Shown one piece after another: positions 1 through 63,742 of a stretch of DNA of 64,000 bases; positions within the stretch are counted from its first letter, which is position 1, and every line of letters starts with the position of its first letter. Below the pieces are notes generated by a model, which did not search any database, was not told the origin of the DNA, and worked only from the letters and a program-made list of their open reading frames with translations. The DNA lies in contig JAFURZ010000006.1 of NCBI GenBank assembly GCA_017480785.1, positions 1 through 64,000 of the forward strand, in the 5' to 3' direction. A program made the translations under genes and the position numbers. This DNA is from Bacteroidales bacterium (lineage in GTDB: Bacteria > Bacteroidota > Bacteroidia > Bacteroidales > P3).

Positions 1-302
1 GTCGGTGTGAATAGCGCGGTTGTAGATAGGTCGTGCGCGATGTAATTAAGGTTTTTTAGCATTTGAGGCGTCCTGCGACGGGGTGGCGGCGCGGGGCGAT
101 GCCGGAAGGAGGCGAAAAACGGATGTGGTTGATTTCCAGCGAAGACTGGCTTTGGGCTGTCTCAAATGCGGTTTAAAAACGTGTTATCAACGTGTTAGGT
201 CCGACTGCAGTCGGACCATCCTCGGAGTTGTGTCGGAGTTGAGTCGGAGTTGTTACGGAGGGGAGGCGGGGGTGCCCGGCGGTTAGGTCGTGCGCGACCT
301 AA
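1..302 (+). repeat. Left arm of a 302-bp inverted repeat; copy 1 of the 11-mer element
   Basis: This non-coding block reappears inverted at 9175-9476 with equal length and only scattered substitutions. It carries a 16-base near-palindrome, AGGTCGTGCGCGACCT, at its right end and a related AGGTCGTGCGCGATGT near its left end (30-45). Inside are a perfect 20-base palindrome (198-217) and three tandem 11-base units of the form TCGGAGTTGNN (222-254). A 67-codon open frame crosses it, but it runs through the palindrome and tandem units and is unlikely to be a gene. The repeat may extend left of the window. Confidence 0.85.
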
Positions 303-406
303 CCGCCTTGCAAGGGAGGCTGGCGGAAAAAGTGTGCCTGAGGCCGCGGACGGCACAATAAAAAGCGGACGCGGCCGTTAATGGAGGGCAAGAAAGGGTA
401 CCGCCT

Positions 407-1756
407 GTGCAGAAGAAACTACTCTCCGGCCTGTTCTGGGTGTTGCTGGCCAACCTGCTGGTCAAGCCGCTCTGGCTCCTGGGCATCGAGGTCGACGTGC
501 AGAACACCGTCGGCAACGAGGCCTACGGCTTCTACTTCGCCGTCTTCAACCTGAGCTATATCCTCAACATACTCCTCGACCTGGGCATCACCAACTTCAA
601 CACGCGCAATATCGCCCAGCATCCGCAGCTCATCAGCAAGCATCTGAGCGGCATACTGGGCATCAAGCTGTGCCTGCTGGGGCTGTATGTGGTGGTGACG
701 TTCACCGTCGGGGCCCTGCTGGGCTATGGCAGCCAGGAGTTCCGCCTGCTGGCGTGGCTCTGTCTGGCGCAGGCGCTCAACTCGCTGATTCTCTACCTGC
801 GGAGCAATTTCGAGGGGCTGCTCCTCTTCCGGTGGGACAGTCTTTTCTCGGTCCTCGACCGGGTGTTGATGATTGTCATCTGCGGCTGCCTGCTGTGGGG
901 TCCGCGGCTGTCGGTCTTCAGTTTCCGCTTCACGGTGTTCCATTTCGTCTATGCCCAGGTGGCAGCCTACAGCCTGACGGCCCTGCTGGCCCTCGCCGTC
1001 ATCGGGCGCAAGGCCCGCCTGCAGCGCCTGCGCTTCGACCGGCGTTTCCTGCTGGTCATCTTGAAGCAGAGCGCCCCCTTTGCACTGCTGGTGCTGCTGA
1101 TGGCGAGCTACAACCGGCTGGACCCCATCCTGCTGCGGCGTCTGGCATCGGCCGGTGCCGCCGGCGTCTATGCCGGTGCCTTCCGCCTGCTCGACGCCCT
1201 GACCATGGTGTGCTACCTGGTCAGCGTGCCGCTGCTGCCGGTCTTCTCGAAAATCCTTGCCGACCGCGACGCCCTGTCGTCGCGCGCGTCGCTGGTCGAC
1301 GCCTTGCGCCTCGTCTTCTGGCCCATGGTGCTCTATGTCGCCGGCAGCGCGGTGGCCTGCTCGCTGCTGGCCGCCCCCCTGATGCGGCTGCTCTACCACG
1401 ACGGGGCCGCGTCCTACGTGCCTGTGTTCCGGGTGCTTGTCTTCTGCCTCGTCCCCATCGGGCTGACCTATGTCTTCGGCACCCTGCTGACCGCCGGCGG
1501 GCGCCTGCGGCAGCTGAACCTGCTGGCGACCGTCACCCTGGGGCTCAACGTAGCGGCCAACCTGCTGCTCATCCCGCGGATGGGTGCCGTGGGCTCGGCC
1601 TGGGCGGCCCTCACGGCCCAGAGTTTCATGGCTGCGGCCCAGCTGGCCCTCGCCGTGCGCCTCTTCCGCCTGCCGTTTTCTTCCTTCCTGCCGCTCCCGC
1701 CACGCAATATTTTTCACACAATAGCGTTAATGTTCAAATCAAACCCTAAAGAATAG
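407..1756 (+). CDS. Oligosaccharide flippase family membrane protein (MATE/Wzx-like)
   Basis: This 449-residue, very hydrophobic protein has about 12 predicted membrane helices and resembles the polysaccharide biosynthesis / oligosaccharide flippase family of the MOP superfamily. Members flip lipid-linked glycans across the inner membrane. The N-terminal region (residues 1-60), with a GNEAYGFYFAVFNLSYI stretch, is typical of the Bacteroidota branch. The chosen start is GTG, preceded by the purine-rich AGAAAGGG; no in-frame ATG lies nearby. The gene ends 4 bases before fabD, so the two are probably cotranscribed. The glycan substrate cannot be inferred because no glycosyltransferases are adjacent. 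Confidence 0.85.
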   Translation: MQKKLLSGLFWVLLANLLVKPLWLLGIEVDVQNTVGNEAYGFYFAVFNLSYILNILLDLGITNFNTRNIAQHPQLISKHLSGILGIKLCLLGLYVVVTFTVGALLGYGSQEFRLLAWLCLAQALNSLILYLRSNFEGLLLFRWDSLFSVLDRVLMIVICGCLLWGPRLSVFSFRFTVFHFVYAQVAAYSLTALLALAVIGRKARLQRLRFDRRFLLVILKQSAPFALLVLLMASYNRLDPILLRRLASAGAAGVYAGAFRLLDALTMVCYLVSVPLLPVFSKILADRDALSSRASLVDALRLVFWPMVLYVAGSAVACSLLAAPLMRLLYHDGAASYVPVFRVLVFCLVPIGLTYVFGTLLTAGGRLRQLNLLATVTLGLNVAANLLLIPRMGAVGSAWAALTAQSFMAAAQLALAVRLFRLPFSSFLPLPPRNIFHTIALMFKSNPKE

Positions 1757-1760
1757 ACAC

Positions 1761-2639
1761 ATGAAAGCATACGTATTCCCCGGCCAGGGGGCCCAGTTTG
1801 TGGGCATGGGCAAGAACCTCTACGACGGCAACGCCGAGTGCCGCGCCATGTTCGAGAAAGCCAACGACATTATCGGTTTCCGCATCACCGACCTCATGTT
1901 TGCCGGCACGCCGGAGGACCTGAAGCAGACCCGCGTGACGCAGCCTGCCATCTTCCTCCACTCGGTCATCCTGGCCAAGTACCTGGGCGGGCAGTTCCAG
2001 CCCGACATGGTGGGAGGCCACTCGCTGGGCGAGTTCTCGGCCTTGGTGGCCGCCGGTGCCATGGACTTCGAGGACGGCCTGCGGCTGGTCATCGCCCGCG
2101 CCAACGCCATGCAGAAGTGCTGCGAGAAGACCCCGTCGACCATGGCCGCCGTGCTGAAGCTCGACGACAAGACGGTCGAGGACATCTGCGCCTCGGTGAG
2201 CGGAGAAGTCGTGGTGCCGGCCAACTACAACTGCCCGGGCCAGCTGGTCATCAGCGGCACGAACGAGGGCGTGGCCCGTGCCTGCGAGAAGGTGAAAGAG
2301 GCCAAGGGAAAGGCCCTGCCGCTGGCGGTGGGAGGCGCGTTCCACAGCCCCCTGATGGAGCCCGCCCGCGTGGAGCTGGCCGAGGCCATCGAGAAGACCG
2401 CCTTCCACGCCCCTGTATGCCCCTGCTACCAGAACGTGGACGCCCTGCCCCACAGCGACCCCGTCGAGATAAAGAAGAACCTGCTGATGCAGCTCACCTC
2501 GCCCGTGCGCTGGACGGCTACGGTGCAGCACATGATGGCCGACGGCGCCACCGAGTTTATCGAGGTGGGTCCCGGCACGGCCCTGCAAGGCATGGTGAAG
2601 CGCGTCGACGCCAACGCCAACGCCCATTCGGCCGAATGA
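1761..2639 (+). CDS. fabD: Malonyl-CoA:ACP transacylase
   Basis: FabD moves malonyl from CoA to acyl carrier protein, supplying the extender unit for type II fatty acid synthesis in the cytosol. The 292-residue length is normal. The nucleophile elbow GHSLGEFSAL lies near residue 90 and the catalytic histidine lies in GGAFHSPLM near residue 197. The N-terminus AYVFPGQGAQFVGMGKN is the classic acyltransferase opening. It starts 4 bases after the flippase stop and is followed by a strong bidirectional terminator. Confidence 0.97.
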   Translation: MKAYVFPGQGAQFVGMGKNLYDGNAECRAMFEKANDIIGFRITDLMFAGTPEDLKQTRVTQPAIFLHSVILAKYLGGQFQPDMVGGHSLGEFSALVAAGAMDFEDGLRLVIARANAMQKCCEKTPSTMAAVLKLDDKTVEDICASVSGEVVVPANYNCPGQLVISGTNEGVARACEKVKEAKGKALPLAVGGAFHSPLMEPARVELAEAIEKTAFHAPVCPCYQNVDALPHSDPVEIKKNLLMQLTSPVRWTATVQHMMADGATEFIEVGPGTALQGMVKRVDANANAHSAE

Positions 2640-2657
2640 TTTAATTAGTATCAAAGA

Positions 2658-2693
2658 AACCGAAGGGATGCGGAGTGCCGCATCCCTTCGGTT
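2658..2693. terminator. Bidirectional intrinsic terminator between fabD and manA
   Basis: A perfect 16-bp stem (2658-2673 with 2678-2693) closes a 4-base AGTG loop, with A-rich sequence on the left and T-rich sequence on the right. It can end the rightward fabD transcript and the leftward manA transcript, whose stop codon is next to it. Confidence 0.85.
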
Positions 2694-2694
2694 T

Positions 2695-3747
2695 TTATGC
2701 TTCCGCTCCCACGAAGCGGGCCAGCCAGTCGCCTTCGTCGCGGGGGGCGTCGGTCCAGCCAGAGGTGTCGATGGTGACCTCCAGCAGCTTGGCCGGTCCC
2801 TCGCAGAAGAGCTCGACGCTGTCGGCCACGGCCGGCACCAGCACGCATTCGCCCGTGTGCATCGGCACGATGGTCTCCAGGCCCTTCACGGCGGCGAGCC
2901 CGTCGACGCAGAGGTAGAGCACGAAGGTGTCAACCTCCTCAAGGTTCTTGCGCATGGGGGTGTCGAAGTCGATGAGGCGGGTGGTGAAGTAGGGGCAGTC
3001 GGCCAGGGTGACGGTCTGGTTGCGCCGGGGCTGGTAGCGGGTGGCGGCATGAGGGCCGACGGCGCTGAAGTCGATGGCATCCATGGCCTCGGCGGTATGC
3101 AGCTGACGCTTGCGACCGTCCTTGTCGAGGCGGTCATAGTCGTAGATGCGGTAGGTGCAGTCGGAGGTCTGCTGTATCTCGGCCACCATGAGCCCTTTGC
3201 CGAGGGCGTGCACACGGCCGGCGGGGATGAAGTAGACGTCGCCCGGGGCGGGTCGCTCGGCATGGAGCAGGTCGGTGAGGTGGCCGCTCTGCAGGGCGGC
3301 GGTGTATTCCTCGGGGGTGGTGTCGCGTCGGAAGCCACTGATGAGCTGCGCCTCCGGGTCGGCCTGCATGACATACCACATCTCGGTCTTGCCCCGCGGC
3401 ATGCCGCGCCGCTGCGCCAGCGTGTCGTCGGGGTGCACCTGTATGCTCAGGTCGCGGGCGGCGTCAATGAGCTTCACCAGCAGGGGGAACTCGGCGCCAT
3501 AGCGGTTGTAGACCTTGTCGCCCACCAGGTCACCCATATAGATTTCGACCACCTCGTTGAGGGTGTTCTCGGCCAGGAAGCCGTTGGCCACCACGCTCTC
3601 GTGCCCTTCGACCGACGAGAGCGCCCACAGCTCGCCGCAGTTGGGCAGCGGGTCGTAGTTGAAGCCGTAGTCCTTCAGCCGGTTGCCTCCCCAGATGACA
3701 TTCTTGTAGAGGGGGAGGAACTTGAGCGGATAGAGAGCCGACTGCAT
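2695..3747 (-). CDS. manA: Mannose-6-phosphate isomerase, class I
   Basis: This zinc enzyme interconverts mannose 6-phosphate and fructose 6-phosphate, linking mannose use and GDP-mannose synthesis to glycolysis. The 350-residue protein is a short class I form. Zinc ligands are visible in SIQVHPDD, GKTEMWYV and PAGRVHALG, and the QQTSDCTYRIYDYDR segment is typical of cupin-type isomerases. Its ATG overlaps the stop of the upstream small lipoprotein gene by one base (TGATG), so translation may be coupled. Confidence 0.95.
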   Translation of the reverse strand: MQSALYPLKFLPLYKNVIWGGNRLKDYGFNYDPLPNCGELWALSSVEGHESVVANGFLAENTLNEVVEIYMGDLVGDKVYNRYGAEFPLLVKLIDAARDLSIQVHPDDTLAQRRGMPRGKTEMWYVMQADPEAQLISGFRRDTTPEEYTAALQSGHLTDLLHAERPAPGDVYFIPAGRVHALGKGLMVAEIQQTSDCTYRIYDYDRLDKDGRKRQLHTAEAMDAIDFSAVGPHAATRYQPRRNQTVTLADCPYFTTRLIDFDTPMRKNLEEVDTFVLYLCVDGLAAVKGLETIVPMHTGECVLVPAVADSVELFCEGPAKLLEVTIDTSGWTDAPRDEGDWLARFVGAEA

Positions 3748-3971
3748 CAGTAGGTGCGGGTTGTGTGACCGTTGTTGCGGTTGTTGCCGCGTACCTTGAT
3801 ATTCGACTTCACCTTTGTGCCGCGGTTCGACTGCTGGCGCTCATACATGGTGCCGTCGCCCCGCTTGGTGCCGAGCTGCCGGTCGCCACTGCACGACGTG
3901 ACGGCGGCGCCCATGGCCAGCACGGCCAACAGGAGCAGGACGGGGGTGCTTTTCTTCAATAGATTCTTCAT
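3747..3971 (-). CDS. Small putative lipoprotein
   Basis: This 74-residue protein has a hydrophobic signal segment (residues 9-26) ending in AVTSCSG, which fits a lipobox with lipidated Cys27. The mature part is short, basic and rich in Asn, Arg and Thr, with no recognisable domain. Its stop overlaps the manA start, so the two are probably one unit. Function is unknown. The signal peptide and tight junction support a real gene. Confidence 0.7.
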   Translation of the reverse strand: MKNLLKKSTPVLLLLAVLAMGAAVTSCSGDRQLGTKRGDGTMYERQQSNRGTKVKSNIKVRGNNRNNGHTTRTY

Positions 3972-3986
3972 ATTCGGTATGTTTTA

Positions 3987-6110
3987 TCATTTATCAATCA
4001 ATGTCATCTCGTCGACCAGATGGCGTGCTCCGGCATACTTGTCGATGATGAAGAGGCAGTAGCGGATGTCGAGCGAGATGTTGCGGCAGTAGGCGGGGTC
4101 GAAGAGCAGGTCGCTCATGGTGCCCTCCCAGCAGCGGTCGAAGTTGATGCCCACCAGCTGCCCGTCGGCGTTGAGCACGGGCGAACCGCTGTTGCCGCCG
4201 GTGGTGTGGTTGGTGGCGATAAAGGCCACCGGGAGTTCACCCTTGGAATTGGCATACTGGCCGTAGTCCTTCTTCTGCCACAGCTCCTTCAGGCGGGGCT
4301 CCACGCGGTAGTCGTACACGTCGGGGTTCTCCTTCTCCATGATGCCGTCGATGGTGCTGTAGGCGGTGTAGTAGGTGGCGTCCTTGGGGCGGAAGCCCTC
4401 CACGTGCCCGTAGGCCACACGCAGCGTCAGGTTGGCGTCGGGGAAGAAGTTCGAGTCGGGGTACTGCTCCATCATGCCCTTGATGTAGGTGCGCATCAGG
4501 CGCTGGATGTTGTCGTTGGCACGGTTGTACTGCTGGCGCTTGTCGCCCCCATAGCAGTAGTTGTAGGCCTGGTTGAAGAGGTCGACGGCGGGGTCGGTGC
4601 CGATGGCGTGGAGCATCTTCTCGCGCTTCATGTTGAGGAGCTTCTCCAGCTTCTGCGGATTGTTGAGGACCGACTTGGCATAGATGCGCCGCAGCGTGGC
4701 CTCCACCTCGGAGGCGGTGCTGTGCTTGAGGTTCATGTAGGGGGCATAGCCGCGTTCCCACATGTAGAGGAAGGTCTCGGTGAAGATGGCCTCGTCGACG
4801 GGCGAGTGCAGGTCGAAGTCCTCGAAGTATTTCTCGCTGTCGGCCTTCATGCCCTCCACCAGCGATGCGTCGCCGTTGCGCTGGATGCGGAAGAGGCGGT
4901 AGGCGCGCTGCATGAAGTCGCTGGCCATGACGGCCTCGTTGAAGTAGGTCCACTCCAGCTCCACCTCGCGCAGACGGTCGTAGTTCTGCTCCAGGCTGTC
5001 AAGCACCCCGCGGTACTGTGGCTTGTCCCATGCCCAGCGGCGGAACTGCTCCTCCTGCTCCATCTTCTGCTCCACACCGTGCAGGCGCTCAATGCCGAGG
5101 CTCTCGCCCTGCCATTTCTTCCACCCGTTGGCGATGTTGGCCACCCGCGAGGCGTACTTCAGGCGCTGGGCAGCACTCTTGGCCATGGCGGCGTTGTAGT
5201 GGTCGAGGCGAATGGTGCGCAACGCAATGCGCACGGGGTTCTCCTGGTTGGCGGCGAGGTCCACGTAGTCGTGGGTCACATAGCGGCGCGTGGTGCCGGG
5301 GTAGCCGAAAACGAAAGTGAAGTCGCCCTCGTCGACACCCTTGAGGCTAATCTCCAGGTGCTTCATCGGGGTGTAGGGCACGTTGTCCTTGCTGTATGGG
5401 GCCGGTTTGTTGTCCTTGCCCACATAGACGCGGAACATGCTGAAGTCGCCCGTGTGGCGGGGCCACATCCAGTTGTCGGTGTCGCCGCCGAACTTGCCGA
5501 TGTTGCTCGGCGGAGCCCCCACCAGACGCACATCGGTGAACACCTCGTTGACATACATGAAATACTGGTTGCCGTAGTAGAACGGCTTCACGATGGCCTG
5601 GTAGTGGGTACCCTCCACGGCCTTGGCGCAGATGTCCTTGATATTGTTGGCCACGATGGTCTCGCGGTCCTGCTCGGAGGTCTCGTCGCCGACGCCCTCA
5701 AGCACCTGGGCGGTGACGTCCTCCATGCGGACGAGGCGGGTGACGGAGAGGCCCGGGCAGGCTATCTCCTCGTCGCGGTTCATGGCCCAGAAGCCGTTGG
5801 TCAGGTAGTCGTGCTCCACGGTCGAGTGGCGCACGATGTAACTGTAGCCGCAGTGGTGGTTGGTCAGCACGAGGCCCTCGTGGCTGACGAACTCGCCCGT
5901 GCAGCCGCTGCCGAAGAGCAGCACGGCGTCCTTGAGCGAGGCGTTGTTGACGTCGTAGATGTCCTGTGCCGTGATGTGCATGCCGGCCTTCTGCATGGCA
6001 GCCTGGTTGCGGCCCAGCAGCATCGGTATCCACATGCCCTCGTCGGCCTTGGCGGCCATGGGCAGAAGCAGCAGGCCCGCGGCGATGATTGTAAGCAGTT
6101 TCTTTCTCAT
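3987..6110 (-). CDS. dpp11: S46 dipeptidyl-peptidase, DPP11 type (Asp/Glu-specific)
   Basis: This periplasmic serine exopeptidase removes dipeptides from peptide N-termini and serves amino-acid catabolism in Bacteroidota. The product has 707 residues, with a signal peptide ending near AAKADEGMW. The S46 family is shown by TNHHCGY (catalytic His) and TGGNSGSPVLN (nucleophile Ser641). An Arg, in INFDR, lies exactly 18 residues after that serine. In characterised enzymes Arg at this place (Arg673 of Porphyromonas gingivalis DPP11) marks acidic P1 specificity, while DPP7 has Gly. The start at 6110 has AGGAGA just upstream; a longer in-frame start would add 42 residues before the signal peptide and cross the promoter. 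Confidence 0.93.
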   Translation of the reverse strand: MRKKLLTIIAAGLLLLPMAAKADEGMWIPMLLGRNQAAMQKAGMHITAQDIYDVNNASLKDAVLLFGSGCTGEFVSHEGLVLTNHHCGYSYIVRHSTVEHDYLTNGFWAMNRDEEIACPGLSVTRLVRMEDVTAQVLEGVGDETSEQDRETIVANNIKDICAKAVEGTHYQAIVKPFYYGNQYFMYVNEVFTDVRLVGAPPSNIGKFGGDTDNWMWPRHTGDFSMFRVYVGKDNKPAPYSKDNVPYTPMKHLEISLKGVDEGDFTFVFGYPGTTRRYVTHDYVDLAANQENPVRIALRTIRLDHYNAAMAKSAAQRLKYASRVANIANGWKKWQGESLGIERLHGVEQKMEQEEQFRRWAWDKPQYRGVLDSLEQNYDRLREVELEWTYFNEAVMASDFMQRAYRLFRIQRNGDASLVEGMKADSEKYFEDFDLHSPVDEAIFTETFLYMWERGYAPYMNLKHSTASEVEATLRRIYAKSVLNNPQKLEKLLNMKREKMLHAIGTDPAVDLFNQAYNYCYGGDKRQQYNRANDNIQRLMRTYIKGMMEQYPDSNFFPDANLTLRVAYGHVEGFRPKDATYYTAYSTIDGIMEKENPDVYDYRVEPRLKELWQKKDYGQYANSKGELPVAFIATNHTTGGNSGSPVLNADGQLVGINFDRCWEGTMSDLLFDPAYCRNISLDIRYCLFIIDKYAGARHLVDEMTLIDK

Positions 6111-6133
6111 TTTCTCCTTGTCTATTTGCGGTG

Positions 6134-6165
6134 CAAAGTTACGAATAATATCCGACATGGCAAAA
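6134..6165 (-). promoter_or_regulatory. Bacteroidota-type promoter for dpp11
   Basis: On the minus strand TTTTG (6161-6165) is followed after 19 bases by TAACTTTG (6134-6141), matching the TTTG / TAnnTTTG consensus of the primary sigma factor in this phylum. It lies just upstream of the dpp11 ribosome-binding site, and the -33 end abuts the stop of the CNNM gene. Confidence 0.75.
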
Positions 6166-7230
6166 TCAAACTTTCTCCTCGGGCAGTTTAATCTCCTTGA
6201 AGCGGCGCTGGCGCTGCTGCCACCGCTCGCGGGCATACTGCTGCATGTCAGTCACCTCGTCGCTCTCGTCGATAATCTCCAGACCGAAGATGGTCTCGAT
6301 GATATCCTCCAGGGTGATGATGCCCTGGAACGAGCCGTACTCGTCGATGATGCCGCCGATTTGCTCCTTGTGCTTCAGCAGGCTGTCCCAGATGTCGGCC
6401 ACCGACATCTCCTCGTTGAAGAGGGGGATGGTGCGCTTGATGTCGCCCAGGGTCTTGCTGAAGTGGTCCTCGGCCAACTCCTCGAGGGCCTCGCTGCGCA
6501 GCACGTAGCCCGTGATGAAGTCCTCCTCCTCGGCATAGACGGGTATGCGCGAGAAGTGGCTGTACTCGTCCGAGCGGTAGAACTGCTTCAGCGTCATGCC
6601 CTCCGGCGCCGTCGCCGCCACCACGCGCGGCGTCATCACGTCGTAGGCCTTGATGTCGTTCAGCTTGATGACGTTCTGGATAATCTTGTTCTCGTCCTCG
6701 TCGATGACCCCCTCGTCCTCACCCATGTCGGCCATGGCGGCCACCTCCTCGCGGCTGACGGTGGCCTCCTCCTCGTCCTTCTTGGCGATGAGCTTGGTGA
6801 ACCACTGGATGACCACCACGATGGGGTACAGGACGACGATGAGGGCGCGGATGGTGTAGGCCGTGAAGCCCATCAGACGGCGCCACTGGTTGGTGCCGAT
6901 GGTCTTGGGGATGATTTCGGAGAAGAAAAGGATGAGGATGGTGGTGACCGCCGAGACGAGGCCGAACCACTGGTTGCCGAAAGCGGCCTCCACCTGATGG
7001 CCCACGCCGGCGGCGCCTACCGTGTTGGCGATGGTGTTGAGCGAGAGGATGGCGGCGATGGCGCGCGCATTGTCCTGCTTGTAGCGGCGGAACAACTTGG
7101 CGGCGCGGTACCCCTCGTCCTCGCGCATGGTGATATAGCTCAGCGGCGTGCTCATCAGCACCGACTCGAGCACCGAGCACAGGAACGATACCGACATCGC
7201 CCCGAGGAGGAATACGATTAACAGGGTCAT
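6166..7230 (-). CDS. CNNM-domain / CBS-pair membrane protein (CorC/hemolysin family)
   Basis: The 354-residue protein has an N-terminal DUF21/CNNM transmembrane domain (residues 1-145; FFSEIIPKTIGTNQ is characteristic) followed by two CBS domains (about 200-330). Family members are linked to Mg2+/Co2+ efflux, although the old name is hemolysin. The usual C-terminal CorC/HlyC transporter-associated domain seems absent, as in short family members. It is followed by dpp11, which has its own promoter. An A/T-rich micro-repeat separates it from the upstream carboxyltransferase gene. Confidence 0.88.
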   Translation of the reverse strand: MTLLIVFLLGAMSVSFLCSVLESVLMSTPLSYITMREDEGYRAAKLFRRYKQDNARAIAAILSLNTIANTVGAAGVGHQVEAAFGNQWFGLVSAVTTILILFFSEIIPKTIGTNQWRRLMGFTAYTIRALIVVLYPIVVVIQWFTKLIAKKDEEEATVSREEVAAMADMGEDEGVIDEDENKIIQNVIKLNDIKAYDVMTPRVVAATAPEGMTLKQFYRSDEYSHFSRIPVYAEEEDFITGYVLRSEALEELAEDHFSKTLGDIKRTIPLFNEEMSVADIWDSLLKHKEQIGGIIDEYGSFQGIITLEDIIETIFGLEIIDESDEVTDMQQYARERWQQRQRRFKEIKLPEEKV

Positions 7231-7260
7231 TAAACCTTAAACTTTAAACCATAAACCTTA
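7224..7260. repeat. Intergenic micro-repeat of the TTAAACTTTAAACC type
   Basis: Imperfect 7-base units (TAAACCT, TAAACTT, TAAACCA) fill the gap between two leftward genes. The same unit type fills the gap before rny at 30158-30196. Confidence 0.6.
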
Positions 7261-9030: not shown

Positions 9031-9050
9031 ATTACAACTTACTGATATAA

Positions 9051-9174: not shown

Positions 9175-9476
9175 TTAGGTCGCGCACGACCTAACCGCCG
9201 GGCACCCCCGCCTCCCCTCCGTAACAACTCCGACTCAACTCCGACACAACTCCGAGGATGGTCCGACTGTAGTCGGACCTAACACGTTGATAACACGTTT
9301 TTAAACCGCATTTGAGACAGCCCAAAGCCAGTCTTCGCTGGAAATCAACCACATCCGTTTTTCGCCCCCATCCGGCGGCGCTCCGCGCCGCCACCCCGGC
9401 ACAGGACGCCGCAAATGCTAAAAAACCTTAATTACATCGCGCACGACCTATCTACAACCGCGCTATTCACACCGAC
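9175..9476 (-). repeat. Right arm of the 302-bp inverted repeat; copy 2 of the 11-mer element
   Basis: This is the reverse complement of 1-302 at equal length, with a handful of substitutions clustered near 9363-9405. It contains the near-palindromic AGGTCGCGCACGACCT at its left end, three CAACTCCGACN-type units (about 9222-9256), and a 20-base hairpin at 9260-9279 with one substitution relative to copy 1. Together with copy 1 it brackets an 8.9-kb segment of housekeeping genes. Confidence 0.85.
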
Positions 9477-9497
9477 CAGACAACATATTGTTTTTTA

Positions 9498-9573
9498 CAC
9501 GAATGGCCGCGAATGTCCAGGAATTGGCATAAATCCATTTTTGAACATTCTCGGCCATTGGCGGCAATTCGTG
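9498..9573. repeat. Imperfect inverted repeat in the 9.48-9.66 kb gap
   Basis: CACGAAT with a following TGGCCGCGAATG segment pairs imperfectly with CATTGGCGGCAATTCGTG near 9573. It looks like a decayed repeat. Apart from this and a short stem-loop at 9625-9659, I see nothing in 9477-9664. Confidence 0.4.
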
Positions 9574-9624
9574 TTTTATGATTCTCCTGCGGTCACGACA
9601 ATACCCCCGATGTAGGGACAGGGC

Positions 9625-12614: not shown

Positions 12615-12650
12615 AAAAAAAAGATGTTTTTCGCCGTCGTGGAGGGAAGT

Positions 12651-12744
12651 GGGCGGAGTGGGAAAGTTGGGTACTTCTTTGGGCAAGTTGGGTACTTTCG
12701 TGGGTCGATTTTGGAGTTTTCGGCAAAAGGGCCTTATATTGGGG
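12651..12744 (+). repeat. GTACTT repeat family, copy A
   Basis: This block of about 95 bp holds two units around AAGTTGGGTACTT, then GTGGGTCGATTTTGG, and ends in GGCCTTATATTGGG. It matches 43912-44001 (reverse strand, directly before a DUF6266 gene) and 51131-51223. No DUF6266 gene follows this copy, so it may be a relic of a lost gene or an independent element. Confidence 0.7.
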
Positions 12745-12848
12745 GCCGTCCGGTGGCGACATCGGACGAGAGTTCTTACATATTGAGTTGAGAGGAATAC
12801 AGAGCGGCGCCGTTGGATATGCGCCGCCGAAGTAAAAGAAAAAAGGGC

Positions 12849-26364: not shown

Positions 26365-26454
26365 CAACTCCGACTCAACTCCGACACAACTCCGACAGTT
26401 TTACGCTTTTTGTCGGACCATTGTCGGAGTTGTGTCGGAGTTGAGTCGGAGTTG
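26365..26454. repeat. 11-mer element, copy 3 (33-bp perfect hairpin)
   Basis: Three CAACTCCGACN units (26365-26397) are mirrored perfectly over 33 bp by three TCGGAGTTGNN units (26422-26454), with a 24-base loop containing GTTTTACGCTTTTTGTCGGA. The gap between the tRNAs and the next gene (26089-26555) holds only this, a promoter and a terminator. Confidence 0.9.
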
Positions 26455-26486
26455 TCCCGGACCAATCGTGCACAATCCTACCCGAC

Positions 26487-32703: not shown

Positions 32704-33012
32704 TTAGGTCGCGCACGATGTAATCCGATACAACCCCACGGCAACGCCGACTATTCTCCGACTGCGGTCGGACTATACTCGGAGTTGAGTCGGAGTTGTA
32801 TCGGAGTTGTGTCGGAGAAGAGCCTATGGCACAGGCGGTTAGTGTGGGCGGAATGCCGACATGCCCCTATAACATGGCTGTTTTTCAGTGAGTTATGCCG
32901 CAAACAGGGGGTTCGGTTGCCGGGCGGGGGAACTGGCGCGGAGGGGGTGCCGGGCGGGCGGCGAGGGGGCAAAGAGGGGGCTAAAAATGGAAGTTAGGTC
33001 GCGCACGATGTA
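32704..33012 (+). repeat. 11-mer element, copy 4 (full length, diverged)
   Basis: The unit is bounded on both sides by TTAGGTCGCGCACGATGTA (32704 and 32994), the same near-palindromic end motif as the 302-bp inverted repeat. Inside are the hairpin TCCGACTGCGGTCGGA and four TCGGAGTTGNN units (about 32778-32818). It explains most of the 505-base gap 32583-33088; no gene is supported there. Confidence 0.75.
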
Positions 33013-43911: not shown

Positions 43912-44001
43912 CTCCCAATATAAGGCCAAAACCGGAAAAAGGCCAAAATCGACCCGCAATAGTACCCAAATTTCCCACAAAAGTACCCAACTTTCCCACT
44001 C
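43912..44001 (-). repeat. GTACTT repeat family, copy B (upstream of DUF6266)
   Basis: Read on the minus strand it has GGGAAAGTTGGGTACTTTTG, a second GTACTATTG unit, GCGGGTCGATTTTGG and GGCCTTATATTGGGAG. The DUF6266 start codon follows 20 bases later. It may be the regulatory leader of this gene family. Confidence 0.7.
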
Positions 44002-44035: not shown

Positions 44036-44104
44036 AAACTCCGAGGACGGCCCGGCCGCCGTCGGACCATCCTCGGAGTTGCATCGGAGTTGTGTCGGAG
44101 GAAC
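44036..44104 (+). repeat. 11-mer element, copy 5 (degenerate)
   Basis: It contains GGCCGCCGTCGGACCATCC, then TCGGAGTTGCA, TCGGAGTTGTG and TCGGAGGAAC, with a single reversed unit before the hairpin. It lies in the gap 43893-44286, which otherwise holds copy B of the GTACTT family and a lipoprotein gene remnant. Confidence 0.7.
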
Positions 44105-44244: not shown

Positions 44245-44262
44245 ATAAATCAGCGGGTTATG
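44245..44262 (+). repeat. 18-bp direct repeat, copy 1
   Basis: ATAAATCAGCGGGTTATG recurs exactly at 46234-46251 in the same orientation. The two bracket a 2-kb segment with hicBA and two lipoprotein genes. Each lies just beyond the stop of a toxin gene. Confidence 0.6.
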
Positions 44263-51101: not shown

Positions 51102-51130
51102 AAATGCCTGTTTATGTCGTTGGAGGTCTA

Positions 51131-51223
51131 GTGGGCGGAAGTGGAAAGTTGGGTACTTTCGTGGGACATTCGGGTACTATTGTGGGTCGATTTTGAGCAT
51201 TTTCCGAAAAAGGCCTTATATTG
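51131..51223 (+). repeat. GTACTT repeat family, copy C
   Basis: It contains GGAAAGTTGGGTACTTTCG, then GGGTACTATTGTGGGTCGA and GGCCTTATATTG, as in copies A and B. No DUF6266 gene follows. A nested stem-loop (51228-51281) is next. Confidence 0.7.
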
Positions 51224-51227
51224 TCGG

Positions 51228-51281
51228 CTCAGGAGAACACCCCGCCGCACTGGTGGTGGCGGGGTTAGAATAGCTCCTGAG
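51228..51281. terminator. Nested stem-loop after the 51326 gene
   Basis: CTCAGGAG pairs with CTCCTGAG (51274-51281) and CCCCGCC with GGCGGGG (51258-51264). It lies 45 bases beyond the outer-membrane protein stop and has no T-run, so it may be a terminator or a repeat end. Confidence 0.4.
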
Positions 51282-55333: not shown

Positions 55334-55359
55334 TATATCATGTATCCTTGTACCTATAC

Positions 55360-56856: not shown

Positions 56857-56947
56857 TATATATAGTATATTGATTTGCAAAGATACAAAAATTATCCGAT
56901 ATCGGGGCGGAAAAAATGCCGGGAAGGGGGTGGTTTCCGGAGGGGAC

Positions 56948-57037
56948 AACTCCGACTCATCTCCGACTCAACTCCGACACAACTCCGAGGATGGTCCGAT
57001 AAAAAGCGTAAAACGGTCGGAGTTGACTCGGAGTTGT
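56948..57037. repeat. 11-mer element, copy 6
   Basis: Four CAACTCCGACN-type units precede GGATGGTCCGATAAAAAGCG (shared with copies 3 and 7) and two reversed units. It fills the cysS-DUF2723 gap 56857-57071. Confidence 0.85.
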
Positions 57038-57071
57038 TACGGACAATCAGCGGTCGAAAGGGAGGAAAGGG

Positions 57072-58757: not shown

Positions 58758-59224
58758 AGTTCGGAGACTATCTCGTTGACCAGTCCGCTTTCGACGGCGG
58801 AAAAATCCTGCGAGGCAGCATAGTCGCGGTAGCGCGAGAACGACTGCTCGAAGTCGGCGTCAGGATCGACGGTGTTGACAAAGCGCACCTTGATGGTGAT
58901 GGTGAGGCGGTTCATGCTGACCTCGTCGGACGAGGAGAGGGCCGAGGCGCGGGTGTCGTAGCCCACTATCTCGCCGCTCACCTGCAAGTCGCCCTCGTCG
59001 GTGGTCACGGTGAGGGGGGTCTGGCTGGCGAACATCTGGCGCAGGTCGTCGCTGAGCTTTTGGCTGAGCTGGGGGTTGACGGTGGAGGCATAGTTCGGGA
59101 AGTCGGCCACCGAGATAGTCTTGGCGCCGGGCGGGATGGAGGCACCGGTGAACGAGTAGCCCCCCGAGCAGCCCGCCACCAGCAGGCAGGCCAGCAGGCT
59201 AATAATCGCGCGAGTCTTCATCAA
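58718..59224 (-). CDS. lptE: LPS-assembly lipoprotein LptE, Bacteroidota type
   Basis: LptE plugs the LptD barrel and helps insert LPS in the outer membrane. The 168-residue protein has a signal segment ending in LLVAGCSGG (lipobox), then YSFTGASIPPGAKTISVADF, the family opening (Y-x-F-x-G). Two strands and a C-terminal helix (VNEIVSELCEDVFNKSV) follow. ATG 59224 is used; the next codon is also Met. It overlaps the small gene upstream by 26 bases and the DUF2723 gene downstream by 40. Confidence 0.9.
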   Translation of the reverse strand: MMKTRAIISLLACLLVAGCSGGYSFTGASIPPGAKTISVADFPNYASTVNPQLSQKLSDDLRQMFASQTPLTVTTDEGDLQVSGEIVGYDTRASALSSSDEVSMNRLTITIKVRFVNTVDPDADFEQSFSRYRDYAASQDFSAVESGLVNEIVSELCEDVFNKSVVNW

Positions 59225-59369
59225 TACGCTGTTCGTCTTCGAGCTGCCAGAGGAGGAAGCCCGACTCCTGTTGAATGTAGTTCAGCACGGCCACCTTGGT
59301 CATCAGGTCGGGCACGGCGGCCACTTCGCTGATGAGGCTGTCTATCTTTTCCTTGAAGGCTAAATCCAT
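59199..59369 (-). CDS. Small conserved-looking protein upstream of lptE
   Basis: This 56-residue acidic protein (MDLAFKEKIDSLISEVAAVP) has a helical first half and the tail QLEDEQRIDEDSRDY. It overlaps lptE by 26 bases on the same strand and lies 24 bases after the arginase-fold gene, so it is very likely translated with lptE. I do not recognise a family. Support is the tight overlap and good codon use. Confidence 0.6.
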   Translation of the reverse strand: MDLAFKEKIDSLISEVAAVPDLMTKVAVLNYIQQESGFLLWQLEDEQRIDEDSRDY

Positions 59370-59393
59370 AGTGTTGTCTGTATTGTGTGTGTG

Positions 59394-60575
59394 TTATCCG
59401 TTCAATCGGTTATAATAATGCCACCACAGTGGCGGTATCTCGTTCTCCTCCATGGCGTGGAGGTAGTCGGCATAGCTGCACGGCACGAGGGTGTGGGTGA
59501 GGTAGCGCTCGCGACGCTCGGCGTCCTCGCAGGGCACCTCCATCCACCAGCGGTCGCTCTTGAGGCTCTTGTGGAAGACTATCTCCATGCCGCTGTCGCC
59601 CAGCTGGACCGAGAAGTGCTTGAAGGCCTGCGGGTCGCGCGAGGGGAAGTCGCCCAAACGGTAGCAGAAGCCCTCGAGGAAGAACCACAGCGCCTGGGCC
59701 AGCATGTGGGCCGTCTGCTCGTCGCGGTCGCGGGCAGGCACCATCTCGAAGAGGCCGAAGCAGGTGGTCTTGTCGCTCATGCCGGCGAAACGGGCCAGCT
59801 GGCACAGCTGCTCGCCATAGAAGCCGTGGGGCGACGGGCAGGCCGCGGCGGGGGCGTCGCTCTGCCGCACGGCACTCACGTCGACCGCCACCACATCGCT
59901 GTAGCGCACCATGGGCTCGGCCAGCTCCAGGTTGGGCTGCAACTCGCCCAGACGGCGGGTGCTGAACTTCAGCTCCTCCATCAGCTGTATCATCTCACTC
60001 CCGACAAAGTAGGTCTGGTAGCCCAGATTGACATAGTCGAAAAGGTAGTTCGGCTGCTGCAGGATGATGTGCTGCAGGTAGTTGGCGCTGTTGATAGTGT
60101 CGCCCCCCTCGAGGTTGAAGCGGGGGTCGACCGAAGCGATGTTGATGACACGTCCCAGCACCTCGTAGGCCTTGTATATAGGGAAGACCAGGTCGTCGCT
60201 TCCGCCGAGGACGATGACCGTGCGGCCGTCCTCCAGCAGCTGCTGGAGCACCTCGATGACGGCGAAATAAGTATCTCTCACCTCCACGCCGGCGGCGATG
60301 TTGCCGAGGTCGACCAGTTTGAGGTCGGCATGGGGTTGGGCCAGTCGGTACAGCCTGCGGCGGATGAAGTCGGGGGCCGGGGCCGACCCGTGGCCGTCGA
60401 CCGAAGCGCGGTCCTCCTTCACGCCCAGCAGCACCAGCGGTGCCTGCCGCCAGTCGGGGAACGCCCCTCCGGCGGTATAGGCGTGGATGCTGTCGCCCAG
60501 CATGGGGCGGAACTCCTCGCTGCGGTAGTCCACCACGGCCGAATCTATCGGCTCAAAGTAGTTGCTCAGTTCCAT
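59394..60575 (-). CDS. Arginase/formimidoylglutamase-fold protein with altered metal site
   Basis: The 393-residue protein follows the arginase fold (APLVLLGVKEDRASVDGHGS at residues 46-65 and VIVLGGSDDLVFP). The usual metal ligands are changed: GGDHS is GGSDD, DxHxD is DPRFN, and the SxDxD site is AVDVSAV. Known Bacteroidota formimidoylglutamases have similar length. Loss of the His ligands suggests a different metal use or a non-hydrolytic role. The start at 60575 excludes a long antisense frame that overlaps PrsW. Confidence 0.75.
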   Translation of the reverse strand: MELSNYFEPIDSAVVDYRSEEFRPMLGDSIHAYTAGGAFPDWRQAPLVLLGVKEDRASVDGHGSAPAPDFIRRRLYRLAQPHADLKLVDLGNIAAGVEVRDTYFAVIEVLQQLLEDGRTVIVLGGSDDLVFPIYKAYEVLGRVINIASVDPRFNLEGGDTINSANYLQHIILQQPNYLFDYVNLGYQTYFVGSEMIQLMEELKFSTRRLGELQPNLELAEPMVRYSDVVAVDVSAVRQSDAPAAACPSPHGFYGEQLCQLARFAGMSDKTTCFGLFEMVPARDRDEQTAHMLAQALWFFLEGFCYRLGDFPSRDPQAFKHFSVQLGDSGMEIVFHKSLKSDRWWMEVPCEDAERRERYLTHTLVPCSYADYLHAMEENEIPPLWWHYYNRLNG

Positions 60576-60634
60576 AATATCCCTATAACGACAAAGCGCC
60601 CCTTTTATTGTGCCAAGGTTGTCAAAAAGCGTCT

Positions 60635-61399
60635 TTAAACGTTCCAGATGAAGCCGTCGAAGGGGCGGAGGCTGTCGAAGTCGTCCTCGCGGGAGCGTTC
60701 CTGCAGGCGCTTGATGCGTTTCAGGCCCCAACGCCACATCTTCACGTCGAACACCACGAAGACGATGAAAAGCACCGCCGTGACGCCGGTCGAGAGGAGA
60801 CTGTCGCTCCCGCTCAGGTTGCTGCTGACCATCAGCAGCGCGTCGTAGGTGCCGTGCAGGAGGACGGGATAGAGCAACGCCTTCCAGAGGTGGCCCCGTC
60901 GTCCGGCGGGGTCGAACTTGGCCAGCGAGACGTAGTAGCCCATAGTGACGGCAAAGAGGAAGTGGGCCGGCACTGCCAGCAGACCCCGCATCAGGGCCGT
61001 GGTCATCACGTCGCCGCCACCCATCACATAGCCTATATTCTCCACACAGGCGAAGCCCAGCGAGAGGAAGGCGGCATAGACGATGCCGTCGAAGTACTCG
61101 TCGAAGTGGGGGCTGCGCCAGATGACCCACAGCAGCAGCAAGAGCTTGCAGAGCTCCTCGCTCAGGCCCGCCACCACATAGCCGGTGAACACCCCATTGA
61201 GCACCGGCGCCGTCTCGGCCGACGGCCCCAGCGGCATAATCAACCCCTCCATCAGGCTCGCCGGTATCACGCTCAGGCAGCCGACGAAGAACGTCAGCAG
61301 CAGCTTGCCCAGCGGCTCGGGGTTCAGCCGGTCCTTCCGGTAGATGAAGTACAGCAGCAACACGACCGGCAATACAGCCGAAATAAATGCAATATTCAT
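60635..61399 (-). CDS. PrsW-family intramembrane protease-like protein
   Basis: The 254-residue membrane protein has about eight helices and the PrsW/CPBP-like motifs SEELCKLLLL (Glu-Glu), FACVENIGYV, AHFLFAVTMGYYV and LLHGTYDALL, which together form the proposed active site. PrsW in Bacillus cleaves an anti-sigma factor. The target here is unknown. ATG 61399 is chosen because upstream sequence holds a divergent promoter. Its C-terminal tail is basic, then acidic. Confidence 0.88.
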   Translation of the reverse strand: MNIAFISAVLPVVLLLYFIYRKDRLNPEPLGKLLLTFFVGCLSVIPASLMEGLIMPLGPSAETAPVLNGVFTGYVVAGLSEELCKLLLLLWVIWRSPHFDEYFDGIVYAAFLSLGFACVENIGYVMGGGDVMTTALMRGLLAVPAHFLFAVTMGYYVSLAKFDPAGRRGHLWKALLYPVLLHGTYDALLMVSSNLSGSDSLLSTGVTAVLFIVFVVFDVKMWRWGLKRIKRLQERSREDDFDSLRPFDGFIWNV

Positions 61400-61426
61400 G
61401 TCTTTGTCAATTAACCTATTCGGACT

Positions 61427-61475
61427 GCAAAGATACGACTTTTTTCCAATACACGGAAAAAAGTCGTATCTTTGC
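61427..61475. promoter_or_regulatory. Palindromic divergent promoter for PrsW-like gene and trpS
   Basis: Two 21-base arms (61427-61447 and 61455-61475) are perfect inverted repeats around a 7-base AATACAC centre. Each arm ends in TATCTTTGC, facing outward, so each is a -7 element; each T6 run lies where the other promoter needs its -33. Confidence 0.75.
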
Positions 61476-61498
61476 ACCTACGAAAACCAAAGACAATT

Positions 61499-62497
<999 letters not shown>

Positions 62498-62523
62498 GCG
62501 GCACACAAGCGCCTACAAACAGA

Positions 62524-62556
62524 GAGCGCCAGCCCTTGCGGGCCGGCGCTCCTTTT
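62524..62556. terminator. Intrinsic terminator after trpS
   Basis: GAGCGCCAGCCC pairs with GGGCCGGCGCTC around TTGC, then CTTTTC. It can also serve the convergent lipoprotein gene. Confidence 0.85.
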
Positions 62557-62576
62557 CTTGTCTGTCGGTCTTGACC

Positions 62577-62777
62577 TTATTCGGCGATAACGGCCTCGAC
62601 GGCACCTTCGACGATCTCCTCGACGGCGTTCTCGATGGTGGTGCTGTCAGCAACCTCCTCGACGGCGCACTCCACGGGAGCGGTGGTGTCGGCAACCTCT
62701 TCAGCGGCTTTGTTGTTGTTGCAAGCCACGAAACCGAACATACCGGCGATAGCCAGAGCGAATAAAACTTTCTTCAT
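62577..62777 (-). CDS. Small acidic lipoprotein
   Basis: This 66-residue protein has a signal segment ending in MFGFVACNNN (lipobox) and a very acidic mature part rich in Ala, Glu and Val (KAAEEVADTTAPVECAVEEV). Short lipoproteins of this type are abundant in Bacteroidales; function is unknown. The gap 62778-62951 upstream is AT-rich and shows no other gene. Confidence 0.8.
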   Translation of the reverse strand: MKKVLFALAIAGMFGFVACNNNKAAEEVADTTAPVECAVEEVADSTTIENAVEEIVEGAVEAVIAE

Positions 62778-62951
62778 TTCTTTGTTGTTTTAGGTTGTTA
62801 ATACTTTCTTAATTGTCTCTTTTTCAATGCGGTTTGTCGTGTCTGTCCGACCGAAAACCGAGTGCAAAAATACAACACTCCTTCAATACTGAAGGAAAAA
62901 TAATTATGAAATAATGTTAAAATCGGTATAAACTACTGATTGGCAGCAGCC

Positions 62952-63539
62952 TTACGGCAGCGGAACCAGACCATTGAAGCCCATGAAAGCCATGGCCAGG
63001 ATGCCGGCCGTCACCAGCGCGATGGGCACCCCTTTCATGCCGCGCGGCGTGCCGGTGAGGTCCAGCTGCTCGCGGATGCCGGCAAAGAGTATCAGCGCCA
63101 GCGCGAAACCCACGGCGATGGAGGCCGAGTAGACCACGCTCTCGAGGAAATTCATGTGCTTCTGTATCACCAGAATGGCCACACCCAGCACGGCGCAGTT
63201 GGTCGTAATCAGCGGAAGGAACACACCCAGTGCCTGATAGAGCGACGGGGCAATCTTCTTCAGCACTATCTCGACCATCTGCACCAGTCCGGCGATGACG
63301 AGGATGTAGGCTATCGTCTGGAGGTATTCAAGGTGCAAGGGTTCAAGCACATAGGTCATAATGAGCCAGGTCACCATCGTGGCCAGCAGCATGACAAACA
63401 GCACGGCGCCGCTCATGCCCACGCTCGACTTCACATCCTTGCTCACTCCCAGGAACGGGCAGATGCCAAGGAACTGAGCCAGAACGACATTGTTGACCAG
63501 AATGGCCCCTATGATGAGGGCGGGTATTGTGATTCCCAT
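62952..63539 (-). CDS. rnfA: Electron transport complex subunit RnfA
   Basis: RnfA is a six-helix subunit of the Rnf complex, which couples ferredoxin and NAD to ion pumping. The 195-residue product has NNVVLAQFLGICPFLGVSKD in the first helix pair and LITTNCAVLGVAIL in the second, each with the Cys typical of RnfA/RnfE. The LGICPFLGVS wording favours RnfA over NqrE. No other rnf gene lies within this window. It has its own promoter, whereas it is usually the last gene of the rnf operon. Confidence 0.9.
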   Translation of the reverse strand: MGITIPALIIGAILVNNVVLAQFLGICPFLGVSKDVKSSVGMSGAVLFVMLLATMVTWLIMTYVLEPLHLEYLQTIAYILVIAGLVQMVEIVLKKIAPSLYQALGVFLPLITTNCAVLGVAILVIQKHMNFLESVVYSASIAVGFALALILFAGIREQLDLTGTPRGMKGVPIALVTAGILAMAFMGFNGLVPLP

Positions 63540-63566
63540 AGTGATTTTTGTTTACAATTCGGACTG

Positions 63567-63598
63567 CAAAAGTACGAACATTTTCCGAACCGGCAAAA
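63567..63598 (-). promoter_or_regulatory. Promoter of rnfA
   Basis: TTTTG (complement of 63594-63598), 19 bases and TACTTTTG (complement of 63567-63574). The spacer contains GTTCGGAAAATGTTCG, nearly the same as upstream of the tRNA cluster and the zapA unit. Confidence 0.78.
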
Positions 63599-63643
63599 TT
63601 TTTTTTCGTCAGCACCCCGAAAAAAGGTGCCGTCACCCCCGCA

Positions 63644-63742
63644 TCAACTCCGACACAACTCCGACACAACTCCGACAATAGTCCGACAAAAAGCGTAAAA
63701 CTGTCGGAGTTGTGTCGGAGTTGTATCGGAGTTGTGTCGGAC
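63644..63742. repeat. 11-mer element, copy 7
   Basis: Three CAACTCCGACN units, the loop GTCCGACAAAAAGCGTAAAA, and three reversed TCGGAGTTGNN units form an almost perfect hairpin between rnfA and the nitroreductase gene. Confidence 0.88.

What the first reader, a model, noticed from the sequence alone, without database searches (positions are those of the whole stretch)
1..63742. Dispersed intergenic element built from 11-base units around a hairpin, seven copies in 64 kb
Copies lie at about 198-254, 9222-9279, 26365-26454, 32740-32820, 44036-44104, 56948-57037 and 63644-63742, all outside genes. Each holds tandem TCGGAGTTGNN units (or their reverse). Two loop types recur: TCCGACTGCAGTCGGA (copies 1, 2, 4, degenerate 5) and TCCGAYAAAAAGCGTAAAAC (copies 3, 6, 7). 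Copy 3 makes a perfect 33-bp stem. Three copies have matching end motifs AGGTCGYGCRCGAYSTA, giving a unit of about 300 bp with no coding capacity. This could be a MITE-like element, a REP-like nucleoid or transcript-end element, or a binding array for a repeat-specific protein.
Basis: seen in the sequence. Interest (0 to 1): 0.78.

Follow-up and report, generated by a model that had tools for sequence, protein, structure and literature searches.

The report
Dispersed operator-flanked 11-bp hairpin elements
Short non-coding DNA cassettes scattered between genes of a gut-type bacterium carry a stack of 11-base repeats, likely DNA-bending sites and, at both ends of many copies, what looks like the switch site of the cell's own peroxide-stress regulator, spaced in near-whole turns of the double helix.

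Summary
The seven copies are real; the genome has 31 such arrays, and none of 29 inspected lies inside a called gene. 23 of those 29 sit in a discrete 261-344 bp non-coding element bounded on both sides by a near-palindrome, TANRTCGYGCRCGAYNTA (three of the seven window copies). New findings: (1) palindrome-like sites, usually a pair 77-79 bp apart, are conserved at the ferritin/glutathione peroxidase/OhrR-like locus of relatives, including genomes with no dispersed copies. (2) Elements are enriched for the IHF consensus (20 exact hits, 0.8 expected). (3) Palindromes, repeat units and IHF-like sites share an 11-bp lattice although the non-repetitive arms are mostly unalignable. Best reading: a MITE/BIME-like dispersed element working as a helically phased nucleoprotein platform, with an OhrR-type repressor at its ends and IHF/HU bends inside. 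Binding is inferred, not shown. How it spreads is unknown: no target duplication was shown, DDE_3 transposase is absent in 6 of 6 genomes, and Y1 transposase does not track the arrays. 15 of 21 array-bearing genomes lack the exact palindrome, so the operator-flanked form is a subset. New variant of a known kind.

The parts
27..301 (+). Element copy 1 (type A), palindrome to palindrome, 275 bp; the contig begins 26 bp upstream
27..44 (.). End palindrome TAGGTCGTGCGCGATGTA
185..197 (+). Exact IHF consensus TATCAACGTGTTA
198..254 (+). Central hairpin TCCGACTGCAGTCGGA plus 11-bp units
284..301 (.). End palindrome TAGGTCGTGCGCGACCTA (the inverted repeat extends to about 30 bp, GGCGGT...ACCGCC, imperfect at its centre)
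9176..9450 (-). Element copy 2 (type A), inverted relative to copy 1, 97% identical over 302 bp
9222..9279 (-). 11-bp array and hairpin of copy 2
9280..9292 (-). Exact IHF consensus of copy 2
26365..26454 (.). Copy 3: mirrored 11-bp arrays around the TTTTACGCTTTTTG loop, 33-bp Watson-Crick stem; only a degenerate end palindrome (26462-26479, 5 mismatches)
32705..33012 (+). Element copy 4, palindrome to palindrome, 308 bp
32740..32820 (+). 11-bp array of copy 4
32883..32895 (+). IHF-like site, one mismatch, 69 bp after the last unit
44036..44104 (+). Copy 5, degenerate array; no end palindromes; exact IHF consensus at 44248, about 144 bp downstream
56947..57037 (-). Copy 6, array with the AAAAAGCGTAAAAC loop; no end palindromes
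63644..63742 (+). Copy 7, mirrored arrays with the AAAAAGCGTAAAAC loop; no end palindromes and no IHF-like site found nearby

Best explanation
The copies belong to a family of dispersed, non-coding, MITE/BIME-like elements. A complete element is a cassette of about 260-405 bp: operator-like palindrome, 11-bp repeat array around a hairpin, one or two IHF-type bend sites, operator-like palindrome. Shown by sequence: discrete boundaries, intergenic location, a matching palindrome pair at the OhrR-like locus, IHF-consensus enrichment, and a common 11-bp lattice. Inferred: dimers of the host OhrR-type (MarR-family) peroxide repressor bind both ends, an IHF/HU-family protein bends the DNA between them, and the array presents one contact per helical turn on the same face, so that the cassette folds into a looped nucleoprotein complex that would open when peroxide oxidises the repressor. 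Units would expand by slippage and arms be mirrored by template switching at palindromes (inferred). Dispersal is by an unidentified activity acting in trans.
For: Unit: the longest BLAST alignments between type-A copies at unrelated loci stop at the palindromes (about -196 to +80), apart from three copies that also share ~150 bp of an adjacent repeat; 23 of 29 arrays have palindromes on both sides, 1 is cut by a contig start, 5 have none. Operator: exact palindrome in 12 of 120 genomes of the genus, reversed control 0 in all 120; it co-occurs with array pairs in 6 genomes (21 have arrays; Fisher p = 0.007). An OhrR-like homologue was found in 15 of 18 genomes asked; 13 of those 15 loci have a pair of palindrome-like sites (up to 3 mismatches each), 12 at 77-79 bp and one at 100 bp; in G054 an element lies between the two sites, and in G051 the pair, 79 bp apart, is at its ferritin-like gene. 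The protein matches OhrR structures (1z91, E = 1.4e-35) and MarR Pfam models. In G113 the locus site TAGATCGTGCACGATCTA equals 16 of the 17 dispersed sites listed of its 124. Half-sites vary independently in 36, 15 and 9 sites of three genomes, as for a dimer site on double-stranded DNA. IHF: 20 exact WATCARNNNNTTR in 46 elements against 0.8 expected, 66 against 16.8 with one mismatch; 9 of the 20 are in related type-A copies. Around 67 arrays of relatives, 22 exact hits in 23.3 kb against 2 in 39.1 kb of flank. Phase: palindrome spacing is 2-4 mod 11 in 40 of 46 elements; best period 11.0, R = 0.785 against 0.603 at 10.5; 23 of 27 IHF-like sites fall at 15/26-27/38 or 56-57/68-69/78-79 bp after the last unit, classes read off afterwards. 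Only 13 of 378 far-arm pairs show any local similarity. Fitted in vivo looping repeats are 11.08-11.60 bp (PMC1762422, passages).
Against: No binding data. 15 of 21 array-bearing genomes have no exact palindrome, and 6 of 12 palindrome-bearing genomes have no TCGGAGTTG pair, so neither part needs the other. G111 has an operator-flanked element but no OhrR homologue was found (76% complete). 5 of 29 own arrays lack end palindromes. Arrays of RGIG8890 and RUG12038 mostly lack exact IHF sites (3 of 30 and 0 of 7), as does window copy 7. 6 of 46 elements are off the lattice, and shared descent through 11-bp unit changes could explain part of it. The genes beside window copies show no common function. 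No target-site duplication or exact empty site was shown, and no transposase was identified. The regulator scores below NCBIfam's OhrR cut-off (152.5 against 200). The IHF consensus is the enterobacterial one, recalled; its validity in Bacteroidales is untested.
Confidence: 0.42

Rival explanations
1. A plain MITE: non-autonomous copies of an insertion sequence whose terminal repeats are the palindromes (TA|GGTCGYGCRCGA...), with no host function; the OhrR operator resemblance is coincidence or a captured end.
For: Discrete bounded unit, similar copies, intergenic, TA at both ends of the consensus.
Against: DDE_3 (IS630-type) transposase absent in 6 of 6 genomes; outer flanks show no consistent duplication; the palindrome pair is conserved at one locus in genomes with no dispersed copies; lattice and IHF phasing are not expected of inert MITEs.
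Confidence: 0.27
2. A REP/BIME-type nucleoid element of the RIP kind: a gyrase/IHF-binding supercoiling buffer whose hairpin is a by-product.
For: IHF-type sites, hairpins, intergenic dispersal; HU/IHF-family genes present in 6 of 6 genomes.
Against: No REP head tetranucleotide was demonstrated, and Y1/RAYT presence does not track the arrays: 10 of 21 array-bearing against 63 of 99 other genomes, Fisher p = 0.22; array-rich G014 and G054 have none.
Confidence: 0.15
3. A transcribed element: a long RNA hairpin that ends or stabilises transcripts, or a small RNA (as the second G113 family with operator, hairpin and T-run suggests).
For: Very stable folds of copies 3 and 7; 10 G113 loci show a conserved CAGGGCAAGG(A/G)TTTTGCCCTGGTTTT-like hairpin and T-run, one with changes in it; 7 of 27 copies between convergent genes against 8 of 66 gaps.
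Against: Four of six window copies folded have z only -2.1 to -4.2; gene orientations are mixed; end half-sites do not covary.
Confidence: 0.1

Closest known systems
Correia element / CREE-NEMIS (Neisseria)
   Same: Small non-coding dispersed repeat; the larger form is almost only intergenic and has an internal IHF site and hairpin-forming transcript (PMC2229807, passages).
   Different: About 105-155 bp with 24-bp terminal repeats, TA ends and target duplication; no 11-bp array, operator-type ends or helical lattice mentioned in the passages seen; different phylum.
BrickBuilt MITE (Porphyromonas gingivalis)
   Same: Bacteroidales; 19 copies in one strain, intergenic; [quoted passage not shown]
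   Different: 23-nt unit and IS5-type ends GAGACCTTTGCA; no IHF site or operator palindrome in the passages seen.
REP/BIME/RIP elements and REPINs (enterobacteria, Pseudomonas)
   Same: Dispersed extragenic palindromic elements that serve as binding sites for proteins (abstract start of PMC2817692; IHF in RIPs recalled).
   Different: 20-40 bp units (abstract start of PMC3733652) with RAYT partners; here Y1 transposase does not track the arrays.
OhrR/MarR operators
   Same: Palindrome next to a peroxide-defence locus with an OhrR-like gene.
   Different: Known operators are local (recalled); here 15-124 sites are spread over four genomes, in pairs around an array or, in G113, also singly in a second element family.

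Membership tests
MITE | Short, non-coding, multi-copy, bounded unit | tested here: met
MITE | Terminal inverted repeats | tested here: inconclusive
   Ends are two near-palindromes of one consensus, so direct and inverted orientation cannot be told apart
MITE | Target-site duplication | tested here: inconclusive
   No consistent duplication outside the palindromes by eye; TA is part of the palindrome; no exact empty site available
MITE | Autonomous relative or transposase with matching ends | tested here: inconclusive
   DDE_3 in 0 of 6 genomes; no longer element with matching ends among the sites listed (capped list); other transposase families not searched except Y1_Tnp
REP/REPIN with RAYT | Y1 (RAYT) transposase tracks the repeats | tested here: not met
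   Y1_Tnp in 73 of 120 genomes, 10 of 21 array-bearing ones; array-rich G014 (94% complete) and G054 (83%) have none
Correia-like element | Internal IHF site | tested here: met
   By recalled consensus only, 20 exact against 0.8 expected; 19 of 46 elements have an exact one
Correia-like element | Sequence homology to Correia ends | not tested
   No comparison run
BrickBuilt | 23-nt unit and IS5-type GAGACC ends | tested here: not met
   Unit 11 bp, ends TANRTCGYGCRCGAYNTA
OhrR/MarR operator | Bound by the cognate repressor | not testable with these tools
   Inferred from conserved location at the locus
Curated RNA family | Match to Rfam | tested here: not met
   Only three tRNAs in the window at gathering thresholds

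The most novel reading that the evidence does not exclude
The elements are mobile redox-responsive DNA-folding cassettes: each carries two operators of the cell's own peroxide sensor, phased IHF/HU bends and an 11-bp helical ruler, so that OhrR closes tens of small chromosomal loops under reducing conditions and opens them on peroxide. The 11-bp unit would be an evolved ruler matching the in vivo helical repeat.
Probability: 0.22. Interest if true: 0.87.

Novelty: new variant of a known kind. Interest (0 to 1): 0.64.

Why it matters
A dispersed element that appears to carry the host's stress-repressor operator at both ends, with bend sites and repeats on one helical lattice, would give a direct route to ask how small repeats wire regulators into chromosome folding, and would be a natural record of the in vivo helical repeat. 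It also makes the old question of what BIME/Correia-type elements do testable with a defined repressor and an inducer (peroxide).

Tried and rejected
REP/RAYT: rejected as mobiliser because Y1_Tnp does not track the arrays (10 of 21 array-bearing, 63 of 99 others). IS630-type MITE: no DDE_3 in 6 of 6 genomes. Palindromes as paired RNA/DNA hairpins: rejected, half-sites vary independently. Regulon rewiring of neighbours: not supported, 7 of 27 copies lie between convergent genes and the ten window proteins scanned share no theme: polysaccharide synthesis, carboxylase, peptidyl-tRNA hydrolase, MBOAT, CysS, TMEM260-like, Rnf/Nqr, TonB receptor, two without family. Insertion into pre-existing palindromes giving a duplication: the two ends of type-A copies differ in a regular way (far end mostly GATNTA, near end GACCTA). 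Phage-type attP and invertible-promoter readings were considered from the IHF-plus-iteron layout but not tested. Literature: searches on Bacteroidales repeats/RAYT, 11-bp repeats/MITE, the literal 9-mer, and MITE with MarR operator (listings with abstract starts only) showed no report of this element; that is not proof of absence. By my arithmetic (not a call) several exact 18-base matches are expected by chance in the 257-Gb collection; the lone pair in Arthrobacter (L100) is read so.

Dropped rows: two of 48 palindrome pairs (L050 188 bp, residue 1; L160 325 bp, residue 6; each with a 3-mismatch end) before the 46-element analyses. In one search, 42 of the 46 elements gave a usable unit lattice, and 28 had a far arm long enough. 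One search ended in a script error at copy 7 after printing the rest; the copy 7 scan was done. The 28 arm lengths were copied by hand.
Full report
Observation. The seven arrays are present as described. In the 2.25-Mb, 19-contig genome the pattern TCGGAGTTGNNTCGGAGTTG (up to 2 mismatches) gives 79 hits against 1 for the reversed control, forming 31 arrays by my count; 29 were inspected and none lies inside a gene called by a simple codon-usage caller of my own. Copy 3 forms a 33-bp Watson-Crick stem (35 pairs with one G-U).

The unit. Type-A copies at unrelated loci share 74-97% identity, and the longest alignments stop at a near-palindrome TANRTCGYGCRCGAYNTA on each side, apart from three copies that also share about 150 bp of an adjacent repeat. 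With up to 4 mismatches allowed within 330 bp, 23 of 29 arrays have the palindrome on both sides, one is cut by a contig start and five have none: window copies 3, 5, 6 and 7 and C15:107300. The exact palindrome occurs in 12 of 120 genomes of the genus, with none for the reversed pattern in any: 124 sites in G113, 112 in G054, 36 in the own genome, 15 in G115 and 1-4 in the other eight. It was not searched outside the genus, except in six genomes reached through loci, where only one, with the same places as G115, had it; a further named record, RGIG9971 (L133), also holds an operator-flanked element. G113 has no TCGGAGTTG pair but uses other 11-bp units such as TCATCAGGGAG or CTCCTACTCAA; G054 copy L156 uses GGACAACAATG. 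The period stays 11 while the unit changes.

Distribution. 21 of 190 genomes of the family have array pairs (up to 1 mismatch), all in one of 12 genera; 2 of 393 genomes sampled across the order match: the own genome and one with a single one-mismatch hit. Named records are mostly Bacteroidales metagenome assemblies, many from ruminants; Dysgonamonadaceae and Odoribacter records hold related 11-bp arrays. Arrays and exact palindromes co-occur in 6 genomes; 15 have arrays only and 6 palindromes only (Fisher p = 0.007 for association).

The ends look like operators. The palindrome also occurs singly upstream of a conserved peroxide-defence cluster (glutathione peroxidase, MarR/OhrR-type regulator, radical SAM) in G057 and G077, and at the ferritin-like gene beside it in the own genome and of G051. 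The regulator was found in 15 of 18 genomes asked; not in G111, G014 and G091. Of these 15 loci, 12 carry a pair of palindrome-like sites (up to 3 mismatches) 77-79 bp apart and one a pair 100 bp apart; in G054 the two sites are 286 bp apart with an array element between them; in G051 the pair lies at its ferritin-like gene outside the fetched regulator locus. Stray sites with 3-4 mismatches also turn up elsewhere in these loci (two with 3 in L196), so the constant spacing is the stronger evidence. The regulator's best structural relatives are OhrR proteins; it passes MarR Pfam cut-offs but no NCBIfam cut-off, the OhrR model giving 152.5 bits against 200. In G113 the locus site is identical to 16 of the 17 dispersed sites listed (124 in all). 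In 36, 15 and 9 sites of three genomes the two half-sites vary independently, which fits a dimer bound to double-stranded DNA. Element-like sequence sits near this operator in six of the thirteen genomes examined there: G000 (51 bp away), G054 (between the operators), G113 and G115 (a second palindrome 214 and 201 bp on, degenerate in G115; no clear array in G113), G100 and G090 (11-bp hairpin arrays with other units, 4 and 114 bp away). Whether the operator was the source of the element ends or attracts the element is open.

IHF-type sites. The consensus WATCARNNNNTTR (recalled) is found exactly 20 times in 46 elements, in 19 of them, against 0.8 in dinucleotide shuffles; nine of these are in related type-A copies. 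In five elements two sites with at most one mismatch start 42 bp apart (L033, L041, L109, L167, L177). Around 67 arrays of relatives the exact consensus occurs 22 times in 23.3 kb and 2 times in 39.1 kb of flank; eight sites, seven of them in UBA2939, RUG11699 and RUG156, lie at 28 + 11n bp from the first exact unit pair. Arrays of RGIG8890 (3 of 30) and RUG12038 (0 of 7) mostly lack it. HU/IHF-family genes are present in 6 of 6 genomes searched.

Helical lattice. Palindrome-to-palindrome spacing is 2, 3 or 4 mod 11 in 40 of 46 elements from seven genomes (two weak pairs dropped from 48); ten of the 46 are related type-A copies. The best-fitting period is 11.0 (R 0.785; 0.603 at 10.5); using unique spacings only it is 11.05 (R 0.73; 0.43 at 10.5), against a 99.9% null of 0.56. 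The non-repetitive far arm of 28 elements is also quantised, best at 10.8 (R 0.79; 0.73 at 10.5, 0.77 at 11); on its 18 unique lengths R is 0.71 against a 99.9% null of 0.68. 23 of 27 IHF-like sites after the last unit fall at 15, 26-27, 38, 56-57, 68-69 or 78-79 bp, classes that I read off afterwards. Only 13 of 378 far-arm pairs show any local similarity, so shared descent is a weaker explanation, though not excluded. Fits of in vivo lac looping give 11.08-11.60 bp per turn (PMC1762422, passages).

Mechanism. I favour a helically phased nucleoprotein element: repressor dimers at the ends, IHF/HU bends and the array between. Binding, looping and redox response are inferred. Array growth by slippage and arm mirroring by template switching are inferred from mirrored arms (L107, L109, copy 3, C15:124902) and from end palindromes whose inverted repeat extends to 30-40 bp (window 284-301, C4:23764, L109). 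Mobility is supported by dispersed, similar, bounded copies, but neither a target duplication nor a mobilising enzyme was found: Y1_Tnp is in 73 of 120 genomes, 10 of 21 with arrays, and absent from array-rich G014 and G054; DDE_3 is absent in 6 of 6.

Comparison. It works most like Correia elements (IHF site, hairpin; PMC2229807 passages) and resembles BrickBuilt (minisatellite in a MITE, same order; PMC4596501), but shares neither ends nor unit with BrickBuilt, and its ends were not compared with Correia's. It fails the RAYT test for REPINs. I rate it a new variant of a known kind, with the operator-like ends and the 11-bp lattice as the new features.

Noticed in passing
L142-L154 (G113), e.g. 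L146 from 373: A second element family in G113: AT-rich TTTAAGTAAATTTAGGTTAAAAAAT, a single operator palindrome, about 110 conserved bp, a terminator-like hairpin CAGGGCAAGG(A/G)TTTTGCCCTGGTTTT (changed in L152), then 11-bp units TCATCAGGGAG; seen in 10 of the 14 loci scanned. Could be a repressor-controlled small RNA family.
   Followed up: partly
window 1-26 and contig ends (C15:164561, C12:83, C18:83, C4:350118, C14:108246): Several contigs of the assembly end at or within about 1.1 kb of these elements, so copies may be undercounted.
   Followed up: partly
window 9451-9598 and copies at C14:106085, C4:349910: A different palindromic repeat (ACACGAATnGCCG...GAATGTTC...GACATTCGCGGCCATTCGTGT) directly abuts three type-A elements.
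   Followed up: no
window 12648-12746, 43916-43996, 51130-51228: Another dispersed repeat of about 80-100 bp made of GTGGGAAAGTTGGGTACTTTCGTGGG-like units, three copies.
   Followed up: no
window 6124, 20717, 26133, 32609, 48581, 63557: Recurrent motif around TGCAAAAnTACGAA...GGCAAAATTTTTTT; read on the other strand (TTTGCC...TAnnTTTGCA) it looks like a Bacteroidetes promoter (consensus recalled).
   Followed up: no
L058, L078, L090, L099 (Dysgonamonadaceae); L093, L116, L126 (Odoribacter); L086 (Spirochaetales), L095 (Saccharibacteria), L105 (Akkermansia) labels: Related 11-bp arrays of several units in records labelled as other groups (some perhaps mis-binned), suggesting the array may be older than the operator-flanked form.
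   Followed up: no
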